Of a stretch of DNA of 64,000 bases, positions 43,715 through 57,176 are shown piece after piece. The DNA is from Burkholderia sp. BCC0506 (lineage in GTDB: Bacteria; Pseudomonadota; Gammaproteobacteria; Burkholderiales; Burkholderiaceae), in assembly GCF_902833145.1 (NCBI RefSeq), contig NZ_CADFEN010000001.1, positions 249,994 through 313,993 on the forward strand, read 5' to 3'. Both the position numbers and the translations under genes were made by a program. Numbering within the stretch: the first letter of the stretch is position 1; each line of letters starts with the position of its first letter. Below the pieces are notes generated by a model. That model was not told where the DNA came from, ran no database searches, and saw only the letters and a list, made by a program, of their open reading frames with translations.

Positions 43715-44071
43715 GTGCAATCTCGTATCGGCGTCCGGCCGTGGCGGGAACAGGCGGCGGTATGCGCCGTCGGGTGAAAGTCGAACGGGCGGCAGCAAGG
43801 TTCGTGCTGCGCGATCCTGCAAAACGGGGTCGGACGTCGGTTGTCGGCGATCCCGCTCGACCGAAGCACGCTGCGCGTGCGCCGGCTGGTGGGCAACTTG
43901 CCGTCGGCTTCCCGCTCGAGCGTGGCCCAGCATACCGATCACGCATGAAAGCGTCCCGTCCCGGCCGAGCCGGTCGGCGTGAAGGCGACGATCGAATCGC
44001 CCGCCGGCATTCACGTGATATCGTGCGGTTCGACAGCAGCATCCATCGTTCATTCCGTTGCGAGGGGCGAC
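43715..44071. other. Divergent intergenic region, 357 bp
   Basis: Upstream of both the esterase (minus) and a histidine kinase (plus). I see only the GAGGGG ribosome site of the kinase at 44062-44067. No gene, repeat or clear promoter pair recognised. Confidence 0.4.
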
Positions 44072-45193
44072 ATGCGTCTAGCTGATTTCATCATTCGGAA
44101 CATGGAGCCGATCCTCGTGGAGTGGGAGGCATTTGCCGCCACGCTGTTACCGGCTGCGCGGCACATGAACTCGCACGGGCTGCGCGATCATGCGCGGGAG
44201 ATCCTGAGCGCCGTCGCCACGGACATCGCGACCCCGCAAACGCGGCACGCGCAACACGAAAAATCGTTGGGCCGCGCGCCCGAGCCGGCGAATGCGTCGG
44301 AGACGGCCGCGCAGACGCATGCCGTGCTGCGTGCGCGGCGCGGCTTCAACATCAACCAGTTGGCGGCCGAGTATCGCGCGCTGCGGGCCAGCGTGCTGCG
44401 TTTGTGGATCGACGCATGTCAGCCCAGCCCGCCTGACTGGGACGAGATGGTTCGATTCAACGAAGCGATCGACCAGGCACTCGCGGAATCGATCGCTATC
44501 TTCAACGAACAGGTGGAGCAGGCGCGCAACTTACTCCTCGGTATGCTCGGTCACGACATGCGTACGCCGTTGCAGACGATTCAACTGACGGCGTCGTATC
44601 TGGCCGCGCTCAATGCCGGTGAGGAAGTATCGGAGGCGGCCGCCCGGCTGATCCGCAGCGGCGGCCGCATGCAGGGCCTGCTCGACGATCTTTGCGATTT
44701 CAACCGGACGCAGCTCGGACTGGGCATCAACGTCGTGACGCGCAGGATCGATCTCGCTCAGGTGCTCGCCAATGTGGTGGACGAATTGCGGGCAGGGCAC
44801 CCCGATCGAGAGATCGACGTCGCCGTCAGCGGCGATCTCCGTGGGGAGTGGGACGATCAGCGGATGCAGCAGTTGCTGAGCAATCTCGTGAGCAATGCCG
44901 TCAGGTACGGAACGCCCGGGACGCCGGTACGGGTGACGGCTGCGGCGAACGACGCGGAAGTGCTCATCGAGGTCGGCAATCACGGGCCGGCGATCGATCG
45001 GCTCACGCTGGACCGCATCTTCGATCCGCTCCAGCGCGGACGGGTGCGCCCGGAAAGGACGGGCGGCGATGTCGGCCTGGGACTCGGCCTGTTCATCGCC
45101 AACGAAATCGCCAAGGCGCATCGCGGCCGAATCGACGCGCGGTCCGATCACACGGAAACCGTATTCGCGGTGCGGTTGCCGAGACGCGGGTGA
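44072..45193 (+). CDS. Soluble sensor histidine kinase with RsbR-like N-terminus
   Basis: A 373-residue kinase without transmembrane segments. The N-terminal helical domain (about 1-145: MRLADFIIRNMEPILVEWEA, LRARRGFNINQLAAEYRALR) resembles the globin-like RsbRD N-terminal sensor domain seen in some kinases. Then comes HisKA with His161 (GMLGHDMRTPLQTIQ) and an ATPase domain with NLVSNAVRYGTPG and GLGLGLFIANEIAKAH. ATG 44072 follows GAGGGG. No response regulator adjoins it. It could signal to the receiver of the HD-GYP-like protein at 39295-40707, or elsewhere (inference). Confidence 0.9.
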   Translation: MRLADFIIRNMEPILVEWEAFAATLLPAARHMNSHGLRDHAREILSAVATDIATPQTRHAQHEKSLGRAPEPANASETAAQTHAVLRARRGFNINQLAAEYRALRASVLRLWIDACQPSPPDWDEMVRFNEAIDQALAESIAIFNEQVEQARNLLLGMLGHDMRTPLQTIQLTASYLAALNAGEEVSEAAARLIRSGGRMQGLLDDLCDFNRTQLGLGINVVTRRIDLAQVLANVVDELRAGHPDREIDVAVSGDLRGEWDDQRMQQLLSNLVSNAVRYGTPGTPVRVTAAANDAEVLIEVGNHGPAIDRLTLDRIFDPLQRGRVRPERTGGDVGLGLGLFIANEIAKAHRGRIDARSDHTETVFAVRLPRRG

Positions 45194-45323: not shown

Positions 45324-46346
45324 TCAATGCGCGTCGACGAGCCGCGGATCGATATACGCGTCGACGTCCTGCGACTGCTTGTACACGGCGTTGCGCACGT
45401 TGAACGCATTCGCGTTGCGCGTCGAGCCGTAGATCGAATCGAGCCCGTCGCCCTTGCGGAACGCGCGCTTCGCGGCCGCCTCGTCGAGCAGGTGCGTGCC
45501 CTTCAGCAGCGGCAGGTACTGCGCCGGCGCGAGCCCGACGCGCGCCGACATGATCTTGACCGCATCGGCCTGCGTCTTCGGATCGTTGATGTACGCGACG
45601 CAGCGGTACCAGACCTTGATCACCTTCGCCCAGTCGGCCCGGCGCGCGGCGAGGCTCGCCGGCGCGACGGTGATCGCATCGTAGATCAGCCCCGGTGCGT
45701 CCGCCGACGTGAAGATCGCCCGCGCGCCCGGCGCGCGCTTCAACGCCTCGCCGGCGTTCGGTTGCCACGCGGCGATCGCGGCGATGTCGGCCGACGAGCC
45801 GAGCACCTGCGGCAGCTCGTTGGTTTTCGCATTCACGAGCGTGACGTCGCCGTCCTTGAGCCCGTGCTTCTGCAGCGCGGTTTCGAGCAGCAGGTGGTCG
45901 ACGAGGCCGAGCTCGACGCCGACCTTCTTGCCCTTCAGCGCCTCGACGGTGCGCAGCGGCGGCTTCGCGACGATCATGTCGTTGCCGGCCGAATAGTCGG
46001 TCAGCAGGATCATCACGTTCTTCGCACCGGACGCGCCCGTCACGAGCGCATCGCCGTTGGTCGCCGCGACCGCGTCCAGCTTGCCCGCGGAAAACGCGTC
46101 GAGCGACGCCGAATAATCGAACCATTCGAAATCGACGTCGACGCCGGCCTCCTTGAACCAGCCCTTGTCGAGCGCGACCTGGAACGCGACCCAGCCCGGC
46201 CAGTCGCTGTAGCCGATCTTCAGCGGTGCCGCGGCCTGCGCGGCAGGCGCCGCCCATAGCGCGGCAGCCGCGACGGCGGCGCCGAAGGCATGACGGATGA
46301 AACGGAAGGACGACAGGCGGCGGAACGCCGGGGCGGGACGGGTCAT
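45324..46346 (-). CDS. ABC importer substrate-binding protein, guanidine locus
   Basis: A 340-residue periplasmic binding protein of the NMT1/SsuA/TauA-like type, with a signal peptide ending AAQA. Mature features: LKIGYSDWPGWVAFQVALDK, FEWFDYSASLDAFSAGKLDA and VGVELGLVDHLLLETALQKH. ATG 46346 follows GGAGAA. It lies alone on the minus strand behind its own guanidine-I riboswitch. Its permease and ATPase are encoded at the end of the divergent operon (54298-56229). This arrangement and the shared riboswitch class indicate uptake of guanidine or a related compound; older annotations say urea. Each transcript can thus be tuned separately while sensing one ligand. Confidence 0.92.
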   Translation of the reverse strand: MTRPAPAFRRLSSFRFIRHAFGAAVAAAALWAAPAAQAAAPLKIGYSDWPGWVAFQVALDKGWFKEAGVDVDFEWFDYSASLDAFSAGKLDAVAATNGDALVTGASGAKNVMILLTDYSAGNDMIVAKPPLRTVEALKGKKVGVELGLVDHLLLETALQKHGLKDGDVTLVNAKTNELPQVLGSSADIAAIAAWQPNAGEALKRAPGARAIFTSADAPGLIYDAITVAPASLAARRADWAKVIKVWYRCVAYINDPKTQADAVKIMSARVGLAPAQYLPLLKGTHLLDEAAAKRAFRKGDGLDSIYGSTRNANAFNVRNAVYKQSQDVDAYIDPRLVDAH

Positions 46347-46487
46347 CGTTGTTCTCCAGGAGACCGGGATCGGGATCGTCGATACGGCCCGTGCGCGAGC
46401 ACACGGGCCGGCTGCGTGACCGGTTCCTGCGGATGCGGAACGAACGAAACAGCGGCCACGGAGAGGCGCGACGGCCGTTGCCATCGC

Positions 46488-46606
46488 CAATCTCCCGGGC
46501 TTTTGTCCCGCCGTGTAGCACGTGCGCATCCGGTCTCGCGACCGGATGGACTCGCGCCGGGCTGCTCTCGGACCAGACGTTCGATGAACCGGAACCCTAG
46601 CACCCC
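46488..46606 (-). ncRNA. Guanidine-I (ykkC) riboswitch, left
   Basis: Read on the minus strand this segment has the conserved blocks of the guanidine-I aptamer in order: GCTAGGGTTCCGG near the 5' end, CTGGTCCGAGAGC, a variable hairpin (CATCCGGTC/GACCGGATG), and ACACGGCGGGACAAAAGCC with CGGGAG at the 3' end. It precedes the ABC binding-protein gene by about 140 bases and should turn it on when guanidine binds. Confidence 0.93.
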
Positions 46607-46680
46607 TAAGATGCGACGCCGCCGCACCTCTCGGCATCATGCCGAGCGAGAAGCGTGCCAACGGCGCGCGGCAACGCGAT

Positions 46681-46770
46681 TCAACGGCGGCGCAGCGGGC
46701 GCTGAAGTTCGATGAAGCGGGCGGCGAACAGCGCGTGCAGCACGCGCCGGAGCAGGTCGAGTTTGTTCAT
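46681..46770 (-). CDS. Possible 29-aa leader ORF
   Basis: A small frame starting ATG 46770 and ending TGA 46681, product MNKLDLLRRVLHALFAARF followed by IELQRPLRRR. It would form an amphipathic basic helix. It lies upstream of the left riboswitch on the same strand, has no clear ribosome site and could be chance. Confidence 0.2.
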   Translation of the reverse strand: MNKLDLLRRVLHALFAARFIELQRPLRRR

Positions 46771-47050
46771 GAAGGATCGGATAGGGGGTGGCGGTGCATG
46801 GGTTCAGCAATGCCCGTGCCATCGCGGATCGGCCGTTGCGCGAGCACGCGACGCGCACTGCGCCGGTGCGCGGTTGCGTGCGCATGGTGCGCCGCGCGCC
46901 CGCCGCGAGGGCAAGCGCATGCATCCGCCATTCGCGTGCCACGCGGCATCGCGCCGCGGGGCCGCGTCGTGCGGTGATCGGGCGATGGCTGGCATGCAAC
47001 TCGCTTATTCGATGCCCGAGAGGTGCGAAGCAATTTGCATCATCTTCAGG

Positions 47051-47178
47051 ATCGCTAGGGTTCCGGTCGTGCGGCGTGTGCCGCGCGATGCCTGGTCCGA
47101 GAGCAATCCGGTCTTGCCTTCGCCTCGACGAGAGGAAACGGCGAGGCTCCACGGAGGGATAAAAGCCCGGGAGGTCGC
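47051..47178 (+). ncRNA. Guanidine-I (ykkC) riboswitch, right
   Basis: The conserved aptamer blocks are present: GCTAGGGTTCCGG (47054-47066), CTGGTCCGAGAGC (47092-47104), a variable hairpin (CGCCTCG/CGAGGC region) and CCACGGAGGGATAAAAGCC with CGGGAGG (to about 47174). About 55 bases further the UAAP1 gene begins. A possible terminator forms between GGGAGG (47169-47174) and CCCTCTC before a TTTT at about 47207; ligand binding would prevent it. Confidence 0.94.
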
Positions 47179-47232
47179 GATGTCGTTCGGTCGCCCTCTC
47201 ACGCCTTTTGTCCAACCGACCCCGGAGCCGCC

Positions 47233-47988
47233 ATGTCGCCGAGCCCCCAAGCCGTCCTTGCCCCACCGCCGCACGTCGCGTGGGAAACGCTGATTCCCGC
47301 CGGAACCCACTGGTCCGGCATCCTGCGCCGCGGTCTCGCGCTGCGCATCGTCGACGTCGACGGCGGCGCGAACCTGTCCGCCGTCTTTCATCGTCAGGAA
47401 GATTTGCTCGAACGCTACAACATGGCCGACACGCTGAAGGCGCAGCACACCGCGCATCTCACGCGCGGCCATGCGCTGTACACGGACATGGGGCGCGTGA
47501 TCGCGTCGATCACGGCCGACACGCTCGGCTGGCACGACCCGCTCGGCGGCGTCGGCGATGCGCGGTTGTTCGCGCAGAAGTACGGCACGTCGTCGTATCA
47601 GGTCGATCGCAACGCGATGATCCGCAACGGCCGCGACAGCCTCGTGCTCGAGCTCGCGAAATACGGACTGTCGGCGCGCGACCTCGCCGCGAACGTCAAC
47701 TTCTTCAGCAAGCTCGCCACGCGCGACGACGGCGCGCTCGAGTTCGTCGCCGGCCATTCGCCGGCCGGCAGCGCGTTGGACCTGCGCTTCGAGATGAATA
47801 CGCTCGCGGCGTTCTCGACCGCGCCGCATCCGCTCGACCCGCGCCCGGACTACGCGCCGAAAGCCGTGAAGCTGATCGCGTACCGCGCGTATCCGGCCGA
47901 CGGCGCGGCGCCCGACGACGATCCGTGCCGGCGTGCGTGCGAGGAGAACACGCGCGGCTTCGCCAATACCGACCGTCTGTTTGCGTGA
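47233..47988 (+). CDS. Urea amidolyase-associated protein UAAP1 (carboxyguanidine deiminase subunit)
   Basis: A 251-residue protein of the DUF1989/UAAP family. Recognisable segments are [50 protein letters not shown] and [15 protein letters not shown]. Together with UAAP2 it is known as the carboxyguanidine deiminase CgdAB, which removes ammonia from carboxyguanidine to give allophanate. ATG 47233 is preceded by GGAG. First gene of the riboswitch-controlled operon; UAAP2 follows 11 bases after its stop. Which of the cgdA/cgdB names applies I leave open. Confidence 0.92.
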
Positions 47989-47999
47989 GGAGCGAGACC

Positions 48000-48656
48000 A
48001 TGCCGATCATCGAAAGCCGTCTCGACCCGCGCGACGCGATCCACGACGTCACGCTCGACGCGGGCGCCCCGTGGCTGCACGACCTGAAGCGCGGGCAGAC
48101 CTTCCGCATTCTCGACCTGGAAGGCAACCAGGCCGTCGACACGCTGTTCTACTGCACCGACGATCCCGAAGAGCGCTACAGCGCGCAGGACACGATCCGT
48201 GCGCAGCGCAACCTGTATCTGAGCGCGGGCAGCGTGCTGATGTCGAGCCGCGGCAACCCGATGGCGACGATCGTCGCCGACACGTGCGGCCGTCACGACA
48301 CGCTCGGCGGCGCGTGCGCGGCCGAGAGCAACACGGTGCGCTACGCGCTCGACAAGCGCTACATGCACAATTGCCGCGACAGCTTCCTCAACGCGATCGC
48401 GCACTGCACGTGCGGCGCCGGCGCGCGGCTCACGAAGCGCGACCTGGTCGGCAACGTCAACTTCTTCATGAACGTGCCCGTCACGCCGCTCGGCGGGCTC
48501 ACGTTCGAGGATGGCATCTCCGCGCCCGGCAAGTACGTCGAGATGCGTGCGGAGATGGACGTCACGGTGCTGATCTCGAACTGCCCGCAACTGAACAATC
48601 CGTGCAACGGCTACAACCCGACGCCGGTGCGCCTCATCGTGTGGGAGGCGCAATGA
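48000..48656 (+). CDS. Urea amidolyase-associated protein UAAP2 (carboxyguanidine deiminase subunit)
   Basis: A 218-residue partner of UAAP1 with the same fold. Matching segments: [51 protein letters not shown], and the Cys-containing [18 protein letters not shown] close to the C-terminus. It holds more cysteines (CGRHD, CTCGAG) than UAAP1 and is probably the subunit with the metal or nucleophile site (inference). ATG 48000 lies behind GGAGCGAG overlapping the UAAP1 stop region. The carboxylase gene starts 88 bases later. Confidence 0.92.
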
Positions 48657-48744
48657 ACGGCCTCCACGCTCACTTGCTTCGCATGGGGCCGGCGTACGCG
48701 CTGAAGCGCTACTCCGGGCCGACACGTTCGCTGCGGGAGGCAAC

Positions 48745-51700
48745 ATGAGATTCGCCAAAGTCCTCGTCGCGAACCGCGGCGAAATTGCGTGCCGCGTGAT
48801 CCGCACGCTGAAGCGCCTCGGCATCGCGTCGGTCGCGATTTATTCGGATGCGGATCGCGACGCGCGCCACGTGGCGCTCGCCGACGAAGCCGTGCGGGTC
48901 GGCCCCGCACCGGCGGCCGACAGCTATCTGAACGTCGCGGCGATCCTCGCCGCCGCGCGCGAAACCGGCGCGCAGGCCGTGCACCCCGGCTACGGCTTCC
49001 TGTCCGAGCACGCCGGCTTTGCCGACGCGTGCGAAGCGGCGGGCCTGCGCTTCATCGGGCCGCGCGGCGATCACATGCGCGCGTTCGGCCTCAAGCACAC
49101 CGCGCGCGAACTGGCGGCCGCGCAGGGTGTCGCGCTGTTGCCCGGCACCGGGCTGCTCGACGACGTCGCGACGGCGCTCGCCGACGCCGACGCGATCGGC
49201 TATCCGGTGATGCTGAAGAGCACCGCGGGCGGCGGCGGCATCGGCATGTCGCTGTGCCGCGACGCCGCGCAGCTCGGCGCCGCGTTCGAATCCGTCGTGC
49301 GGCTCGGCGCCGCGAACTTCGCGCATGCAGGCGTCTATCTCGAGAAGTTCGTCGAACACGCGCGGCACATCGAAGTGCAGATCTTCGGCGACGGCCGCGG
49401 TGGGGCGATCGCGCTCGGCGAACGCGATTGCTCGGTGCAACGGCGCAACCAGAAGGTGATCGAGGAAACGCCCGCGCCCGACCTGACCGACGCCGAGCGC
49501 GACGCGCTGCACACGAGCGCGGTGCGGCTCGCGCGCGCGGTGGGCTACGCGTCGGCCGGCACGGTCGAATTCGTGTTCGACGCGACCGAACGGCGGTTCT
49601 ATTTCCTCGAGGTGAACACGCGGCTGCAGGTCGAGCATTGCGTGACCGAGGAAGTGACGGGTGTCGATCTCGTCGAATGGATGATCCTGCAGGCCGAGGG
49701 CGACCTGCCGCCGCTCGACACGCTCGCCGTCGCACCGCGCGGCGCGAGCATCCAGGTGCGGCTCTATGCGGAGGATCCGAACAAGCAGTTCCAGCCGAGC
49801 GCCGGGCTGCTCACGCACGTGGCGTTTCCCGAGAACGTTCGGGTCGACGGCTGGATCGACGCGGGCACGGAGATCAGCGCGCATTACGATCCGCTGCTCG
49901 CGAAGCTGATCGTGCGCGGCGACACGCGGCGCGACGCGCTGGCCGCGCTGCGTGCCGCGCTCGACCGTACCGAGCTGTACGGGATCGAGACCAACCTCGA
50001 CTATCTGCGTGCCGTAGTCGGCTCCGACACGTTCGCGCGCGGCGCGCCGACGACCGCGTTCCTGTCGCGCTTCGCGTTCGCGCCGCACACGATCGACGTG
50101 CTCGACGGCGGCGTGCAGACCACCGTGCAGCAGGCGCCCGGGCGCGTCGGCTACTGGAGCGTCGGCGTGCCGCCGTCCGGCCCGATGGACGATCGCGCGT
50201 TCGACCTCGCGAACGCGCTGCTCGGCAATGCGCGCGATGCGGCCGGGCTCGAATTCACGATGGTCGGCGCGACGCTGCGCTTCAACACCGCGACGCTCTT
50301 CGTGCTCGGCGGTGCGCCGCTCGCGGCCACGCTCGACGGTGAGGCGGTGCCGTTCTGGCAGGTCGTGCGCGCGCGAGCGGGTGCGGTACTCAAGCTGGGC
50401 GGCGTGACGGGCGCCGGCGTGCGCGCATGTCTCGCCGTCAAGGGCGGGCTGCAGGTGCCCGACTATCTCGGCAGCAAGGCGACCTTTACGCTCGGCCAGT
50501 TCGGCGGCCATGCGGGCCGCGCGCTGCGCAAGGGCGACGTGCTGCATCTGCACGCGGACGCCGGGCGCGGCGACGCCGGTGCGACGCTGGCCGCGGCCGA
50601 CGTTCCGGCGCTCACGCATGCATGGACGCTCGGCGTGCTCGACGGTCCGCATGGCGCGCCGGATTTCTTCACGCCGGACGACATCGCGATGCTCTACGGC
50701 ACGCAGTGGACCGTCCATTACAACTCCAGCCGCACCGGCGTGCGGCTGATCGGCCCGAAGCCGCAATGGGCGCGTGCGGACGGCGGCGAGGCAGGGCTGC
50801 ATCCGTCGAACATCCACGACAACGCGTATGCGATCGGCGCCGTCGATTTCACCGGAGACATGCCGGTGATTCTCGGCCCGGACGGCCCGAGCCTCGGCGG
50901 CTTCGTGTGTCCGGTGACGGTCGTGCGCGACGAGCTGTGGAAGCTCGGGCAGTTGCGGCCGGGCGATACCGTGCAGTTCGTGCGCGCGGGCGTGCCGGCC
51001 GCGAAACCGGACGCGAAACCGGCTGCCGCGGTCGCGGCGGCGCCACGTGGCGTTGCCGCGGCGACATCCGGCCCGTTCGGCGATTGCGTGCTGCATCGCG
51101 ACCCGTCGGCCGGCGGCGGCATCGGCGTCGTCTACCGGCGCTCGGGCGACCGCAACGTGCTCGTCGAATACGGGCCGCTCGTGCTCGACCTGAACCTGCG
51201 CTTTCGCGTGCACGCATTGATGTGCTGGCTCGACGCGCACCGGCTGCCCGGCATGCTCGACCTGACGCCGGGCATCCGCTCGCTCCAGGTGCAGTTCGAC
51301 GCGCGGACGCTGCCGCTCGACACGCTGCTCGCGCATCTGCGCACGGCCGAGCGCGAACTGCCCGACGTGGCCGACATGCGCGTGCCGAACCGCATCGTGC
51401 ATCTGCCGCTGTCGTGGGACGACCCGTCGACGCGCGTCGCGATCGAGCGCTACATGCAGTCGGTGCGACCCGACGCGCCGTGGTGCCCGAGCAATATCGA
51501 GTTCATCCGGCGCATCAACGGCCTGCCGAGCATCGATGACGTGAAGCGCATCGTGTTCGACGCGCGCTACCTGGTGATGGGCCTCGGCGACGTCTACCTC
51601 GGTGCGCCCGTCGCGACGCCGATCGACCCGCGGCACCGGCTCGTGACGACGAAATACAACCCCGCGCGCACCTGGACGCCGGAGAACGCGGTCGGCATCG

Positions 51701-52365
51701 GCGGCGCGTATCTGTGCGTGTACGGGATGGAAGGGCCCGGCGGCTATCAGTTCGTCGGCCGCACCGTGCAGATGTGGAATCGCCACCGCACCACGCGCGA
51801 ATTCGAAGCCGGCAAGCCGTGGCTGCTGCGCTTCTTCGACGAAATCCGCTTCTACGAAGTCAGCGAGGCCGAGCTGAGTGCGCTGCGTGCGGATTTCATC
51901 GCGGGGCGTGCGACGCTGAAGATCGAGGAATCCGTGTTCGACCTGGGCGCCTACAACCGCTTCCTGCGCGACGAGGCGGAGTCGATCGCCGCGTTCAAGG
52001 CGACGCAGCAGGCCGCGTTCGACGCGGAGCGCGAGCGGTGGCGCGCGGCCGGCCATGCGGACTACGTCGGCGACGCGGAGCCGGGCGACGCGCCAGCGGA
52101 CCGGGAAGCGGGCGCGCTCGACGACACGCAGCGCGCGATCGCCGCGGACGTGTCGGGCAGCGTATGGAAGGTGCTGGTGGAAGCCGGCGAGCGCGTGACC
52201 GAAGGGCAGGTCGTCGCGATCGTCGAGTCGATGAAGATGGAGGTGGCGGTGACGGCAACGGAAGACGGCACGATCGAGACGATCGATTGCGCGCCGGGCG
52301 CGGCGGTGGTGGCCGGCCAGCGGCTGATGGTGATGAAGGCGGGCGCCGCCGAGGAGGTCGCATGA
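48745..52365 (+). CDS. Biotin-dependent guanidine/urea carboxylase
   Basis: A 1206-residue enzyme. The N-terminal biotin carboxylase (about 1-450) has [20 protein letters not shown], the ATP-grasp loop [12 protein letters not shown] and [14 protein letters not shown]. The central carboxyltransferase region (about 460-1110) is built from KipI/KipA (AHS1/AHS2)-like domains ([20 protein letters not shown]). The C-terminal biotinyl domain has Lys1164 in VESMKMEV. It carboxylates guanidine (or urea) with bicarbonate and ATP. The guanidine riboswitch and UAAP genes favour guanidine as the physiological substrate; the sequence alone does not exclude urea. Its stop overlaps the allophanate hydrolase start (ATGA). 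Confidence 0.95.
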
Positions 52366-54233
52366 GCACGACGGAACGCTCGATCCCGGCCGCGCGGCAT
52401 TCGATTGCCGCGCTGCGCGCCCGCTACGCGGCGGGCGACCTCACGCCGCATGCGCTTGTCGACGCGATCGCCGCGCATTTCGACGCGGGCGACCCGCACC
52501 ATGCATGGATCCGGCCGCTCACGCGCGACGAGATGATGCCGTATGCCGACGCGCTGGCCGGACGCGACATCGCGTCGTTGCCGCTGTACGGCGTGCCGTT
52601 CGCGATCAAGGACAACATCGACCTTGCCGGCATTCCGACGACGGCAGGCTGCCCGGCCTATGCATACACGCCGGCACGCAGCGCACCCGTGGTCGAGCGA
52701 TTGATCGCGGCCGGCGCGATTCCCGTCGGCAAGACCAATCTCGACCAGTTCGCGACCGGGCTCTCGGGGCAGCGCTCGCCATACGGCGCGTGCCGCAATG
52801 CGCTCGACCCGCGTTACGCGTCGGGCGGCTCGAGTTCCGGGTCGGCGGTGGCCGTCGCGCTCGGCGTCGCGACGTTCTCGCTCGGCACCGACACGGCGGG
52901 CTCCGGGCGCGTGCCGGCCGCGTTCCACGGGCTCGTCGGGCTGAAGCCGACACGGGGCGTGCTGAGCACGCTCGGCGTGGTGCCGGCGTGCCGGTCGCTC
53001 GATTGCGTGTCGGTGTTCGCGCGGTCGGCCGACGACGCGCGCACCGTGTTCGCCGCCGCGCACGGCGTGACGGAAGGCGATCCGTACGGACGTGCATGGC
53101 AGCCGCTGCTGGGCGCGGACGGATTGCGCGCGCAGCCGGCGCGGCCGCTCGGGCAATTGCGTTTCGGCATGCCGCGTGCCGATCAGCTCGAGTTCTTCGG
53201 CGACGCATCGTATCGCGCGGCGTGGGGCGTGGCGCTCGAACGCCTGCGCACGACCGGCGCGCGGATCGTCGAGATCGATTTCGAACCGTTCCTGGCCGCG
53301 GCGCGGCTGCTGTACGACGGCCCGTGGGTTGCCGAGCGGCTCGCCGCGATCGGCGCGTTCGCCGCGCGCGAGCCCGATGCGCTGCATCCGGTGATCCGCG
53401 AAATCGTCGGCGGTGCGGCGCGTTTCAGCGCCGCCGATGCGTTCGCCGCATTCGACCGGCTCGCCGCGCTGCGCGTCGAGGCGGCCCGCGCGTGGGACGG
53501 CCTCGACGCGATCGTGATGCCGACCTCGGCGACGACCGCGACCGTCGACGCGCTCGAAGCCGATCCGATCGCGATCAATTCGCGCTTCGGTTACTACACG
53601 AACTTCGTGAACCTGCTCGACCTGTCGGCGATCGCGGTGCCGGCGGGCACGTGCGCGACCGGGCCGCATGCGGGCTTGCCGTTCGGGATCACGTTCGTCG
53701 GTCGCGCGCACGACGATGCGCGGCTGCTCGATCTCGCGCACGCGTGGGGCGACGGCACGGCCGCCGTCGGCGACGTCCGGTCGCCCGAGGCCGCGGCGCC
53801 GGCGCGCGCCGCAGCCGCGGGCGTCGTGCGGGTGGCCGTCGTCGGCGCGCATCTGCGCGGCGAGCCGTTGAATTGGCAGCTCACGCAGCGCGGCGCGCGC
53901 TTCGTCGATGCGACCACCACCGCGCCGGCCTATCGGCTCTATGCGCTGTCCGCCGACGCAAGCGGCGGCGTCGCCAAGCCGGGGCTCGTGCGCGTGCCGG
54001 ACGGCGGCGCGCCGATCGCGGTCGAGATCTGGGAGATGCCGGTCGAGGCCTACGGCAGTTTCGTCGCCGGGATCGCGGCACCGCTCGGCATCGGCACGCT
54101 GACACTCGCCGACGGCTCGCGGGTGCAGGGCTTCCTGTGCGAAAGCGCGGCGCTCGACGATGCGCGGGACATCACGCGGTTCGGCGGCTGGCGCGCTTAC
54201 CGCGCGCAGGCCGCGAGCGGCGCACTGCAATGA
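52362..54233 (+). CDS. atzF: Allophanate hydrolase
   Basis: A 623-residue amidase-signature enzyme that splits allophanate into two ammonia and two CO2. The catalytic Lys83 ([13 protein letters not shown]), cis-Ser in [11 protein letters not shown] (about 157) and nucleophile Ser near 181 ([12 protein letters not shown]) are all present. The C-terminal domain (about 490-620: LINWQL-like [45 protein letters not shown]) is the AtzF/DUR1-type extension that acts on the intermediate. ATG 52362 overlaps the carboxylase stop, so both are made together, as the fused urea amidolyase of yeast. Confidence 0.95.
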
Positions 54234-54297
54234 ACGCACGGTCGCGCGATGCCGCGGCAGCCACGCGACCGGCACTCGAAACGATACGGAGATTCCG

Positions 54298-55272
54298 ATG
54301 ACAACGACCCGCAACACGACCGGATGGCTCGCCGTGCGGCGCGAGCTGACCACGCGCGGCAAATGGACGCTCGGGCTGGCGTCGTTCCTGCTGCCGTTCG
54401 CCGTCTGGTGCCTGATCAGCTATGTCCCGTTCGTCTGGCATCCGCAGATGCGCATCACGAATCCGGGCAGCGTCGACTATTTCCAGACCGGCATGCAGAT
54501 CGACCGCGACGTGTTCGACGACGAGCTCGCGCATGCGCGGGCCGAGCATGCGGCGGTGCCCGAAGGGGAGCGCGCGAACCCGGTCTACCTGCCGGCGCCG
54601 CACCAGGTATTGCGCGCGTTCTACACGGCGTTCACGACACCGCCCGCGTCGCGCGACGGCGTGTGGCTGCACGAAAGCCTGTGGCACAGCATCCGCATCA
54701 TCTTCTGGGGTTTCGTGATTTCGTCCGCGATCGGCGTGCCGCTCGGCATCGTGTGCGGCACCTTCAGTGCGCTCGCGCGACTGCAGGAGCCGTTCCTGGA
54801 GTTCTTCCGCTACCTGCCGGCGCCGGCGTTCGGCGCGCTGATGGTCGCGATTCTCGGCATCTACGACGCGCCGAAGATCGCGATCATCGTGATCGGTACG
54901 CTGTTCCAGCAGGTGCTGATCATCGCGAACACCACGCGCAAGCTCGAATACGGGCTGTTCGAGGCCGCGATGACGCTCGGCACGAAGAAGCTGAAGCTGC
55001 TCACGCACGTCGTGATTCCGGGCGTGCTGCCGGATCTGTATCGCGATCAGCGGATCCTGCTCGGCTGGGCGTGGACCTACCTGATCGTCGCCGAGCTGGT
55101 CGGCACGAGTTCGGGCATCACGTGGTACATCAGCCAGCAGGCGCGCTACCAGCATTTCGACAACGTGTATGCGGCGATCCTGATGATCGGGATCATCGGC
55201 CTCGGCACCGACCTCGTGCTCGCGCTGCTCGGCCGCCGGCTCTTTCCGTGGGACCGCACGCTGAAAGCGTGA
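54298..55272 (+). CDS. ABC transporter permease, guanidine locus
   Basis: A 324-residue inner-membrane permease of the SsuC/TauC/NrtB type. The first helix (about residues 25-45) is followed by a long periplasmic segment (about 46-150), unusual in length for the family. Five more helices follow, with the cytoplasmic EAA loop EAAMTLGTKKLKLLTHVVIP for the ATPase contact. ATG 54298 follows GGAG. It works with the ATPase encoded 45 bases downstream and the binding protein at 45324-46346. Confidence 0.93.
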   Translation: MTTTRNTTGWLAVRRELTTRGKWTLGLASFLLPFAVWCLISYVPFVWHPQMRITNPGSVDYFQTGMQIDRDVFDDELAHARAEHAAVPEGERANPVYLPAPHQVLRAFYTAFTTPPASRDGVWLHESLWHSIRIIFWGFVISSAIGVPLGIVCGTFSALARLQEPFLEFFRYLPAPAFGALMVAILGIYDAPKIAIIVIGTLFQQVLIIANTTRKLEYGLFEAAMTLGTKKLKLLTHVVIPGVLPDLYRDQRILLGWAWTYLIVAELVGTSSGITWYISQQARYQHFDNVYAAILMIGIIGLGTDLVLALLGRRLFPWDRTLKA

Positions 55273-55317
55273 GCGCCGCCCGCACGTCCCCATCGACCGA
55301 TTTCAGCAGAGGGCATC

Positions 55318-56229
55318 ATGCAGAACCCGCAAGCCGTCCCCGATTACCTGATTCAATCCGACGCGGTGCGCGAGCGCTTCGCGCGGCTGAAGGCCCGCGA
55401 CGTGATCCTCGACGTGCGGCACGTCGGCAAGCGTTTCGCGACGCCGCAAGGCGAGTGCGTCGCGCTCGACGACATCAGTTTCCGCACGCACCGGCGCGAG
55501 TTCGTGTGCGTGATCGGCCCGTCCGGCTGCGGCAAGTCGACGCTGATCCGGATCCTCGCCGGGCTCGATGCGCAAACGAGCGGCGAGGTGCTGCTGGACG
55601 GCAAGCCGGTCGACGGGCCGGGCGCCGATCGCGGGATGGTGTTCCAGGGCTACACGCTCTTTCCGTGGCTCACGGTGAAGAAGAACGTGATGTTCGGCCT
55701 GCGCATGAACGGCAGCAGCAGCGGCGAGGCCGAGCGCGAGGCGCTGCAGTGGCTCGATCTCGTCGGGCTGACGCGTTTCGCCGACGTGTATCCGCACCAG
55801 TTGTCGGGCGGCATGAAGCAGCGCGTGGCGATTGCCCGCGCGCTCGCGAACCGGCCGCGCATCCTGCTGATGGACGAACCGTTCGGCGCGCTGGACGCGC
55901 AGACGCGTGCGAGGATGCAAACGCACCTGCTCGACATCTGGCGCAACATTGACGTGACGATCCTGTTCATCACGCACGATCTCGACGAGGCGATCTTCCT
56001 GGCCGACCGGATCCTGGTGCTGAAGGCGAATCCGGGCGGCGTGCAGGAGCTGATCGAGGTGCCGGTGCCGCGGCCGCGCGATTATTCGCAGGTCAATACG
56101 CCGGAGTTCATCGCGACGAAGGCGCGGCTCGAAGCGCTGATCCATCCGAAGGAGGCCGCGCCGGCGGAAGACGACGGCATCAAGCCGCACATGATCCGGA
56201 TGACGGACGTGGCGGACAACGTCGAGTAG
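55318..56229 (+). CDS. ABC transporter ATP-binding protein, guanidine locus
   Basis: A 303-residue ATPase of the SsuB/TauB/NrtD type. Walker A is GPSGCGKST (residues 67-75), the Q-loop [12 protein letters not shown], the signature [15 protein letters not shown], Walker B ILLMDEP and the switch His in FITHDLDEA. The N-terminal 30 residues and C-terminal tail (about 270-303) extend beyond the core. Last gene of the guanidine operon; the next gene starts 209 bases away. Confidence 0.94.
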
Positions 56230-56438: not shown

Positions 56439-57176
56439 ATGAAGGTAACCATTGCGTACATCGAAGAACCTCCATTCGGCTGGACCGAAGCGGACGGCAC
56501 GGCTGCCGGTGCCGATCTCGAGCTCGCGGCGACGATCCTGCGCCAGATCGGCGTCACCCGGATCGAGTATTGCCCGACGACGTTCAGCGAATTGCTGCCC
56601 GGCGTCGCGGCAGGCTACTGGGACATGAACGTGCCGCTCTTCGTGACACCGCGGCGTGCCGATACCGTCGCGTTCAGCGTCCCGGTGTGGGGGATCGAGG
56701 ACGGTTTCCTGGTTCGCCCCGGCAACCCGAAGGCGCTCAGGAGTTATGCGTCGATCGCCGAGCGTCCCGATGCGCGGCTCGGCATCATTGCCGGACAGGT
56801 GCAGCACGATTCCGCGATGGCGTCAGGCGTGAGCCGGCGGCAGATCGTCCTCTTCGAACAGCAAGCCGATGCGATCGCGGCCGTGCTCTCCGGCGTGATC
56901 GACGCCTACGCGAGCACGGCGTTGGGCAATCGCATCGTGGCGGGCCGGATCGGCAGCGCGATGATCGAGGCCGTCGCGCACGAGCCGGATGTCGACGGCA
57001 GCCAGCGGACGCCGCCGCTGGGCGCGTTTTCATTCAACCGGGGCAACGAGGCGCTTCTGACGGCGGTCAATCGGCAACTTCGCTCATATCTCGGCTCGCC
57101 GGACCATCGTGCCCGCATGGCGAGATTCGGGCTGACGGATCGCGAGATCGATCCGGCTGTCTTGCAGAGCGCATAG
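56439..57176 (+). CDS. Signal-less family 3 solute-binding protein
   Basis: A 245-residue protein with the amino-acid binding-protein fold: MKVTIAYIEEPPFGWTEADG, AGADLELAATILRQIGV, MNVPLFVTPRRADTVAFSVP, LGIIAGQVQHDSAM. It starts directly with the first beta strand, so it has no signal peptide, and the frame has no upstream start. It should be cytoplasmic, with a sensing, carrier or enzymatic role. It follows the guanidine operon by 209 bases on the same strand but has its own spacing and no recognised riboswitch. It shares design with 23957-24691, though the two sequences are not close. Confidence 0.85.
   Translation: MKVTIAYIEEPPFGWTEADGTAAGADLELAATILRQIGVTRIEYCPTTFSELLPGVAAGYWDMNVPLFVTPRRADTVAFSVPVWGIEDGFLVRPGNPKALRSYASIAERPDARLGIIAGQVQHDSAMASGVSRRQIVLFEQQADAIAAVLSGVIDAYASTALGNRIVAGRIGSAMIEAVAHEPDVDGSQRTPPLGAFSFNRGNEALLTAVNRQLRSYLGSPDHRARMARFGLTDREIDPAVLQSA

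What the first reader, a model, noticed from the sequence alone, without database searches (positions are those of the whole stretch)
46347..56229. Two back-to-back guanidine-I riboswitches split one guanidine import and degradation system
Both strands of the same intergenic region carry complete guanidine-I aptamer blocks (CTAGGGTTCCGG, CTGGTCCGAGAGC, ACACGG...GGGA.AAAAGCCCGGGAG). One controls only the ABC binding protein; the other controls UAAP1/UAAP2, the carboxylase, allophanate hydrolase, permease and ATPase. Separate control of the binding protein from its own permease and ATPase allows different stoichiometry or thresholds for one ligand. The class is known (ykkC guanidine-I); the divergent double arrangement splitting one transporter is the notable part.
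Basis: partly seen in the sequence, partly recalled or inferred. Interest (0 to 1): 0.72.

Follow-up and report, generated by a model that had tools for sequence, protein, structure and literature searches.

The report
Nitrogen-gated twin guanidine riboswitches and microprotein
A bacterium of the Burkholderia group appears to keep its guanidine-scavenging genes behind two locks, a nitrogen-starvation promoter and a guanidine-sensing RNA, has the transporter's capture protein split off under its own copy of both locks, and carries a small, apparently unannotated protein gene between them.

Summary
Confirmed: one intergenic region holds two back-to-back guanidine-I aptamers, both above Rfam's cut-off (76.7 and 76.4 bits), the only two found in the genome. 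One leads a lone ABC binding protein, the other UAAP1/UAAP2, carboxylase, allophanate hydrolase, permease and ATPase. The design is conserved: of 65 genus genomes, the 32 with guanidine-I all carry this divergent pair. Split binding proteins form one clade across several genera (98/90). Some relatives with one switch keep the binding protein inside the operon.

Each aptamer lies a fixed 60 or 65 nt behind a sigma-54-type promoter (34 of 34 loci; TPP-riboswitch control 0 of 29), with an NtrC-like palindrome between. Published B. cenocepacia ntrC RNA-seq shows loss of what appear to be both arms (PMC5491218). A third sigma-54 site precedes a conserved, apparently unannotated 29-codon gene with a coding signature. 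Best reading: nitrogen shortage starts transcription and guanidine lets it finish. Different thresholds for the arms are possible but untested. Known parts, new variant.

The parts
45324..46346 (-). ABC transporter substrate-binding protein (NMT1/SsuA-like), alone behind the left switch
   Evidence: TIGR03427 141.9 bits (below cut-off 333.9), PF09084, PF13379; next gene (43979-45193, kinase) is convergent
46455..46500 (-). expression-platform hairpin of the binding-protein arm (overlaps the 3' strand of the aptamer), no U tract here
   Evidence: RNAfold -28.6 kcal/mol; similar hairpin in the 9 sequences printed; columns largely conserved
46490..46611 (-). guanidine-I aptamer, binding-protein arm
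   Evidence: RF00442 76.4 bits
46645..46660 (-). sigma-54 (-24/-12) promoter motif of the binding-protein arm, TGGCACGCTTCTCGCT, 60 nt before CTAGGG
46681..46770 (-). 29-codon gene MNKLDLLRRVLHALFAARFIELQRPLRRR (new microprotein candidate)
   Evidence: present in 32 of 32 genus loci; coding signature; core motif once in the genome
46806..46821 (-). sigma-54 promoter motif of the 29-codon gene, TGGCACGGGCATTGCT, 51 nt before its ATG
46855..46869 (.). NtrC-type palindrome GCACTGCGCCGGTGC, candidate shared enhancer
   Evidence: GCACN7GTGC enriched upstream of guanidine-I arms
46990..47005 (+). sigma-54 promoter motif of the operon arm, TGGCATGCAACTCGCT, 65 nt before CTAGGG
47044..47175 (+). guanidine-I aptamer, operon arm
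   Evidence: RF00442 76.7 bits
47161..47209 (+). expression-platform hairpin running into a U tract (terminator-like), operon arm
   Evidence: RNAfold -16.6 kcal/mol; not picked up by the simple terminator scan
47233..47988 (+). UAAP1 (DUF1989; carboxyguanidine deiminase subunit by published work, recalled)
   Evidence: TIGR03425 331.5 bits, over cut-off
48000..48656 (+). UAAP2 (DUF1989)
   Evidence: TIGR03424 339.4 bits, over cut-off
48745..52365 (+). urea/guanidine carboxylase
   Evidence: TIGR02712 1838.8 bits, over cut-off
52365..54233 (+). allophanate hydrolase
   Evidence: TIGR02713 760.3 bits, over cut-off
54292..55272 (+). ABC permease
   Evidence: PF00528
55318..56229 (+). ABC ATPase
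   Evidence: PF00005; TIGR01184 250.2 bits, below its cut-off 291.8

Best explanation
A two-key guanidine-scavenging locus. Key 1: under nitrogen shortage phosphorylated NtrC, bound between the arms, activates sigma-54 RNA polymerase at divergent -24/-12 promoters. Key 2: each new transcript begins with a guanidine-I aptamer; guanidine stabilises its 3' stem and keeps the downstream hairpin from forming, so the mRNA is completed. Both keys stand before the enzyme-permease-ATPase operon and before the lone binding-protein gene. The binding protein was most likely moved out of the operon once, with a copy of the promoter-aptamer unit, which allows it to be made in a different amount while staying under both signals. 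A third sigma-54 promoter, with no aptamer before its gene, makes a 29-residue microprotein under nitrogen shortage alone. Shown by sequence: aptamers, promoter motifs, conservation, coding signature, clade of the split binding proteins. From published RNA-seq: NtrC dependence of what appear to be both arms in B. cenocepacia. Inferred: guanidine response, terminator switching, NtrC binding here, direction of the move, excess of binding protein, any function of the microprotein.
For: Aptamers. Divergent pair in all 32 genus genomes that have guanidine-I, of 65 searched. Sigma-54 motif at fixed spacing, score >=11 of 12, on both arms of 34 of 34 loci (32 genus, 2 Trinickia); TPP-riboswitch control: 0 of 29 distinct regions reach 10. 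Over 216 distinct upstream regions of regex-matched guanidine-I copies, 200 score >=11 against 0.76% of shuffles; in other orders of the class 34 of 49 against 0.18%. The exact pattern occurs 20 times in 7.3 Mb (backward-read control 7), three of them here. GCACN7GTGC in 81 of 216 upstream regions, shuffles 4.5 +/- 2.0. B. cenocepacia H111 ntrC mutant: I35_7283 and 7285 zero reads, 7286 log2 -6.0. Split binding proteins one side of a branch, 98/90; aptamer arms separate, 98/97; own switch kept with no operon within 10 kb in L210, L214 and L217; relic of the gene at the in-operon place in L078.
Against: The H111 experiment as described used only ammonium and mentions no guanidine, yet both arms must have been expressed in the wild type to differ so much, so the riboswitch lock may leak or guanidine may be made inside; a strict AND is not shown. 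That I35_7283-7286 are these genes rests on order and annotation; H111 itself was not at hand. A single GCACN7GTGC is not rare in this window (4 seen, 3.4 expected), and the exact palindrome is in 24 of 32 genus loci. For sigma-54, 15 of 49 regions in other orders of the class and 3 of 6 in other classes score below 11. The sigma-70 scan found none, but expects only 0.1 by chance, so it says little. The binding-protein arm has no U tract in 8 of 9 sequences printed, and the operon arm lacks a run of four T in 3 of 9, so the switching step is unclear. The 29-codon gene has no clear Shine-Dalgarno sequence in the upstream stretches printed and was not found in 12 of 65 related loci.
Confidence: 0.72

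Rival explanations
1. One reading: the essence is two guanidine thresholds or ratios; the promoter type is incidental.
For: Different platforms and 5' leaders on the two arms; arms separate in the aptamer tree.
Against: Aptamer cores match the same consensus with equal scores. Conservation of the promoter unit at fixed spacing and the H111 ntrC data make nitrogen control at least as central. No dose data exist here.
Confidence: 0.3
2. Neutral relocation: the binding-protein gene moved with a promoter-switch copy and nothing was gained.
For: The in-operon arrangement persists in the P. tropica/kururiensis clade with one switch; a relic at the in-operon place in L078.
Against: The split is kept across Burkholderia, Trinickia, Paraburkholderia, Pararobbsia and a Herbaspirillum MAG. 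A different transporter type shows a like split in L072.
Confidence: 0.2
3. The 29-codon stretch is conserved DNA or RNA (enhancer, sRNA), not a protein.
For: No clear Shine-Dalgarno sequence; it lies in a regulatory region.
Against: Pairwise changes among 26 distinct sequences are 1481 synonymous to 974 non-synonymous in frame against 261:2247 and 245:2167 in the other frames, and third positions change more than twice as often as first or second (pairs not independent).
Confidence: 0.12
4. The sigma-54 motifs are chance matches and unseen sigma-70 promoters drive the arms.
For: Consensus matches alone are not function; 7 backward-read control hits in the genome.
Against: Fixed spacing in 34 of 34 loci against 0 of 29 in the TPP control, shuffles 0.76% or lower, ntrC mutant data.
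Confidence: 0.05

Closest known systems
Guanidine-I (ykkC subtype 1) riboswitch, RF00442
   Same: Both arms match the family over its curated cut-off, with the conserved core.
   Different: Two copies, back to back, before separate parts of one transporter-enzyme system, each behind a sigma-54-type promoter.
Enterobacterial guanidine loci (Raoultella terrigena, Erwinia rhapontici, Klebsiella michiganensis): importer and deaminase with guanidine-I, carboxylase and allophanate hydrolase with guanidine-II (review PMC12186494, passages)
   Same: One guanidine-assimilation system split over two guanidine riboswitches.
   Different: There two riboswitch classes, one downstream of the other, with a guanidine importer under the first; here the same class twice, divergent, and the binding protein cut off from its permease and ATPase.
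Herbaspirillum seropedicae SmR1 Hsnc110 and Hsnc116, two ykkC leaders before HSERO_RS22365 and RS22370 (PMC7011215, passages)
   Same: Two guanidine-I leaders before neighbouring genes; fetched locus L072 (G575, leader lengths 101 and 100 nt as in the paper) looks like it.
   Different: The passages list them without orientation, transporter split or promoter; a different transporter type.
NtrC/sigma-54 regulon of B. cenocepacia H111 (PMC5491218, section 13 and passages) and the sigma-54 regulon survey PMC12316311 (passages)
   Same: Urea-carboxylase-related genes and a periplasmic protein are already listed as NtrC-activated; COG3665 (that this is DUF1989 is recalled) is listed as sigma-54-regulated.
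   Different: Filed under urea use in the H111 paper; guanidine occurs 0 times in either main text; the small gene is not described in what I read.

Membership tests
Guanidine-I riboswitch (RF00442) | covariance-model score over gathering cut-off, full length | tested here: met
   76.7 and 76.4 bits, cut-off 63, model 1-107
Guanidine-I riboswitch (RF00442) | guanidine binding and guanidine-dependent expression | not testable with these tools
   needs in-line probing and reporters
Guanidine carboxylase pathway | UAAP1, UAAP2, carboxylase and allophanate hydrolase together over curated cut-offs | tested here: met
   TIGR03425, TIGR03424, TIGR02712, TIGR02713 all over cut-off
TIGR03427 urea-carboxylase-linked ABC binding protein (equivalog) | score over cut-off 333.9 | tested here: not met
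   141.9 bits (141.5); sits in the same kind of place but is filed only as a relative
sigma-54-dependent promoter | GG-N10-GC core with TGGCAYG-N4-TYGCW, conserved position | tested here: met
sigma-54-dependent promoter | loss of expression without rpoN or its activator | tested here: inconclusive
   not run here; published for presumed orthologues in H111
NtrC enhancer site | GCACN7GTGC-type palindrome upstream of the promoters, NtrC binding | tested here: inconclusive
   about 70-230 nt from the three predicted starts here; present in 24 of 32 genus loci, enriched overall, not rare by itself; binding not tested
Intrinsic-terminator expression platform | hairpin that competes with the aptamer 3' stem, followed by a U tract | tested here: inconclusive
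   of 9 sequences printed per arm, a run of at least four T follows in 6 on the operon arm and 1 on the binding-protein arm; the simple scan finds none in the window
Known small-protein family | match in Pfam or NCBIfam | tested here: not met
   three variants: best Pfam E 0.044 (TFIIE_alpha, below its cut-off), no NCBIfam match

The most novel reading that the evidence does not exclude
Guanidine-I riboswitches of Pseudomonadota are, as a rule, the second key of an NtrC/sigma-54 nitrogen gate (a DNA-level and an RNA-level sensor in series). In Burkholderiaceae the same gate also makes a dedicated, previously undescribed microprotein that tunes guanidine uptake or the carboxylase pathway.
Probability: 0.4. 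Interest if true: 0.75.

Novelty: new variant of a known kind. Interest (0 to 1): 0.6.

Why it matters
It would mean that in these bacteria guanidine sensing serves nitrogen foraging rather than detoxification, and that a metabolite riboswitch is wired in series with the general nitrogen regulator. It turns genes annotated as urea use into a guanidine circuit that published ntrC data already bear on. It gives a clean natural case of an ABC binding protein released from its transporter operon yet kept under the same two signals, and it names a small gene for testing.

Tried and rejected
Amphipathic-helix idea for the 29-residue protein: hydrophobic moment 0.13, 3453 of 5000 shuffles as high; rejected. 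Family match for it: none in Pfam or NCBIfam.

Counting every second guanidine-I locus in other families as the same split: rejected. In L070 and L071 the main operon has its own binding protein and the second switch leads a different set of genes; L106, L143, L146, L156 and L109 also show other genes after their binding protein (judged by eye). Only L072 looks like an independent split; L145 with L146 is undecided.

The SBP_bac_3 gene at 56439-57176 as part of the operon: not seen behind the ATPase in L113-L118, where 305-736 nt follow it (E limit 1e-8); left out, though such short stretches could hide it.

Classifier slip: L233 was called in-operon because of a 35% carboxylase match far upstream; I count 12, not 13, in-operon loci and 12, not 11, of the type without a motif.

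Solved structures for the binding protein: five distant matches (a reconstructed ancestral binder named AncQR, taurine, sulphonate and nitrate binders, THI5). Nothing further was made of them. No structure was predicted.

Choices that could flatter the result: the spacings 60 and 65 tested were taken, and each locus was turned by asking for a sigma-54 score of at least 10 at -65 (none of 34 failed); the shuffle tests do not use these spacings. The 29-codon gene was sought on the opposite strand only; one search repeats it with controls (same strand 0 of 65, shuffles 0 of 650).
Full report
OBSERVATION. Covariance search of the window found two matches over gathering score, both guanidine-I and full length, on opposite strands of one intergenic region; the assembly has no others. 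The organism is a Burkholderia near B. latens and B. cenocepacia by its binding protein (99% identity to each).

HOW COMMON. Of 65 genomes of the genus (own included; stricter filters that can lose weak matches), 32 have guanidine-I, and each of the 32 has exactly two matches. I confirmed the divergent pair by motif in loci from all 32: own plus 29, the other two. Among 71 named loci found with the binding protein, one search gave: 21 divergent pair under 1 kb apart, 15 divergent pair 1-6 kb apart, 1 with only permease and ATPase on the other side (Herbaspirillum MAG L220), 3 with own switch and no operon within 10 kb, 1 with own switch but no motif match before the operon, 13 inside the enzyme operon (12 after correcting L233), 11 (12) with permease but no motif upstream, 1 switch-led with permease and ATPase, 5 other or cut.

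ORIGIN OF THE SPLIT. In a tree of 42 binding proteins (43 hand-picked; L244 dropped for a stop) the 22 labelled split form one side of a branch (98/90, 97% of bootstrap trees). The aptamers of the two arms also part cleanly (19 and 23 rows of 56, 14 in no group, 98/97; the alignment is short and the bootstrap had not settled). In the P. tropica/kururiensis clade the gene sits between allophanate hydrolase and permease behind one switch. L078 holds a 35-residue remnant of it at just that place, besides the intact divergent gene. So the gene most likely moved out once with a copied promoter-aptamer unit; I infer the direction. In the Pararobbsia loci L210 and L214 the pair has come apart, yet the binding protein keeps its switch; in the matching assemblies the two parts are on different contigs (L094 and L181 of G099, L095 and L180 of G079).

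THE MISSED PROMOTERS. Upstream of each aptamer lies a sigma-54 element. At 60 nt (binding-protein arm) and 65 nt (operon arm) before CTAGGG, 33 of 34 loci (32 genus, 2 Trinickia) score 12 of 12 and 1 scores 11, on each arm. Upstream of TPP riboswitches in the same genus the best of 29 distinct regions is 9 (30 of 64 matches were fetched, one duplicate dropped). Over 216 distinct upstream regions, not independent of each other, 123 score 12, 200 score 11 or more and 214 score 10 or more; shuffles reach 11 in 0.76%. In other orders of the class 34 of 49 reach 11 (shuffles 0.18%); in other classes of the phylum 3 of 6 (loci of the best-scoring matches only). The exact pattern occurs 20 times in this genome (backward control 7), three of them in this one region. 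The sigma-70 scan of the region found none, but 0.1 is expected by chance, so this is weak. The NtrC-type palindrome GCACN7GTGC lies between the arms in 24 of 32 genus loci; such palindromes occur in 81 of 216 upstream regions against 4.5 +/- 2.0 in shuffles, though one alone is not rare in the window, and divergent arms can share one palindrome.

EXPERIMENT ALREADY IN PRINT. In B. cenocepacia H111 shifted to low ammonium, an ntrC mutant had zero reads of I35_7283 (urea carboxylase-related ABC transporter, periplasmic protein) and I35_7285 (urea carboxylase-related aminomethyltransferase), and I35_7286 (urea carboxylase) fell by log2 6.0; 95% of the top 150 genes were also sigma-54-regulated (PMC5491218, section 13 read). 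By order and name these appear to be the binding protein, UAAP2 and carboxylase of this locus, that is, both arms. The authors file them under urea. The section mentions only ammonium, not guanidine, which warns against a strict AND. Searches of the open library that combined guanidine or riboswitch with sigma54, NtrC or RpoN terms listed no paper that by its listing makes the link; each showed only its 10-20 top rows, I opened few of them, and subscription papers are mostly not held.

A SMALL GENE BETWEEN THE ARMS. The third sigma-54 site (46806-46821, minus) lies 51 nt before an ATG opening 29 codons, MNKLDLLRRVLHALFAARFIELQRPLRRR. All 32 genus loci have site and frame; the two Trinickia loci in that alignment (L074, L075) lack them. 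Among 26 distinct sequences, pairwise changes are synonymous far more often in this frame than in the others (1481:974 against 261:2247 and 245:2167) and fall on third positions (1709 against 790 and 701). Among 65 distinct loci with a UAAP1 of at least 70% identity, 53 have such a frame on the opposite strand within 1 kb upstream of the aptamer, all 53 with a sigma-54 score of 10 or more within 130 nt; 12 lack it, and 2 more (L164, L205) were set aside for want of a switch match. The same finder gave 0 of 65 on the other strand and 0 of 650 shuffles. It is also present beside single-switch operons, so its partner is the enzyme operon rather than the binding protein. A profile search of 150 family genomes gave 11 strong hits (E below 1e-8), all at guanidine loci by coordinates, and 9 weak ones; the core motif occurs once in this genome. 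It is absent from the gene tables of two plasmid records that span the place (those tables are incomplete). No Pfam or NCBIfam family fits.

MECHANISM. Nitrogen shortage, then NtrC and sigma-54 transcription; guanidine-I then decides completion; both locks stand before both parts of the importer. In the window the operon arm folds into a hairpin running into a U tract and the binding-protein arm into a stronger one without; of 9 sequences printed per arm, 6 and 1 have a run of four or more T there, so the second lock may work differently on the two sides. Splitting lets the binding protein be made at its own level, which I infer and did not test.

MEMBERSHIP AND NOVELTY. Both aptamers are guanidine-I by the tested sequence criteria. 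The pathway is the guanidine carboxylase pathway; its enzymology is known from published work (review PMC12186494, passages seen). A split over two riboswitches is known in enterobacteria with two classes, and a pair of ykkC leaders is listed for H. seropedicae. As far as I searched, what is new here is the same-class divergent split of one ABC importer with its evolutionary history, the sigma-54 coupling of the riboswitch, and the small gene.

Noticed in passing
46681-46770 (-), promoter 46806-46821 (-): Conserved, apparently unannotated 29-codon gene with its own sigma-54-type promoter and a coding signature; no known family.
   Followed up: partly
L253-L309: Sigma-54-like sites also precede most guanidine-I aptamers fetched outside Burkholderiales (34 of 49 in the same class, 3 of 6 in other classes of the phylum), in the three of the latter at 37-39 nt.
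   Followed up: partly
L202:6926-9415: In P. xenovorans the two arms are about 3 kb apart, with an isopenicillin-N-synthase-like 2-oxoglutarate/Fe(II) oxygenase, a sugar-phosphate-isomerase-like protein and a MarR-like regulator between them (my reading of the ORFs, no family search); a dioxygenase of that kind feeds a guanidine pathway elsewhere (PMC12508155, abstract start).
   Followed up: no
L078:885-989 (-): 35-residue remnant of the binding-protein gene at its in-operon place, next to an intact divergent copy.
   Followed up: yes
L070, L071, L106, L143, L146, L156, L109: A second guanidine-I switch (or, in L109 and L156, the one seen) leads another binding protein followed by genes that look by eye like membrane, dehydrogenase, DMT-exporter and isochorismatase proteins: perhaps a pathway for another guanidino compound.
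   Followed up: partly
56439-57176 (+): Family-3 binding-protein-like gene, starting without an obvious signal peptide, directly behind the ATPase; not seen in L113-L118, where 305-736 nt follow the ATPase.
   Followed up: partly
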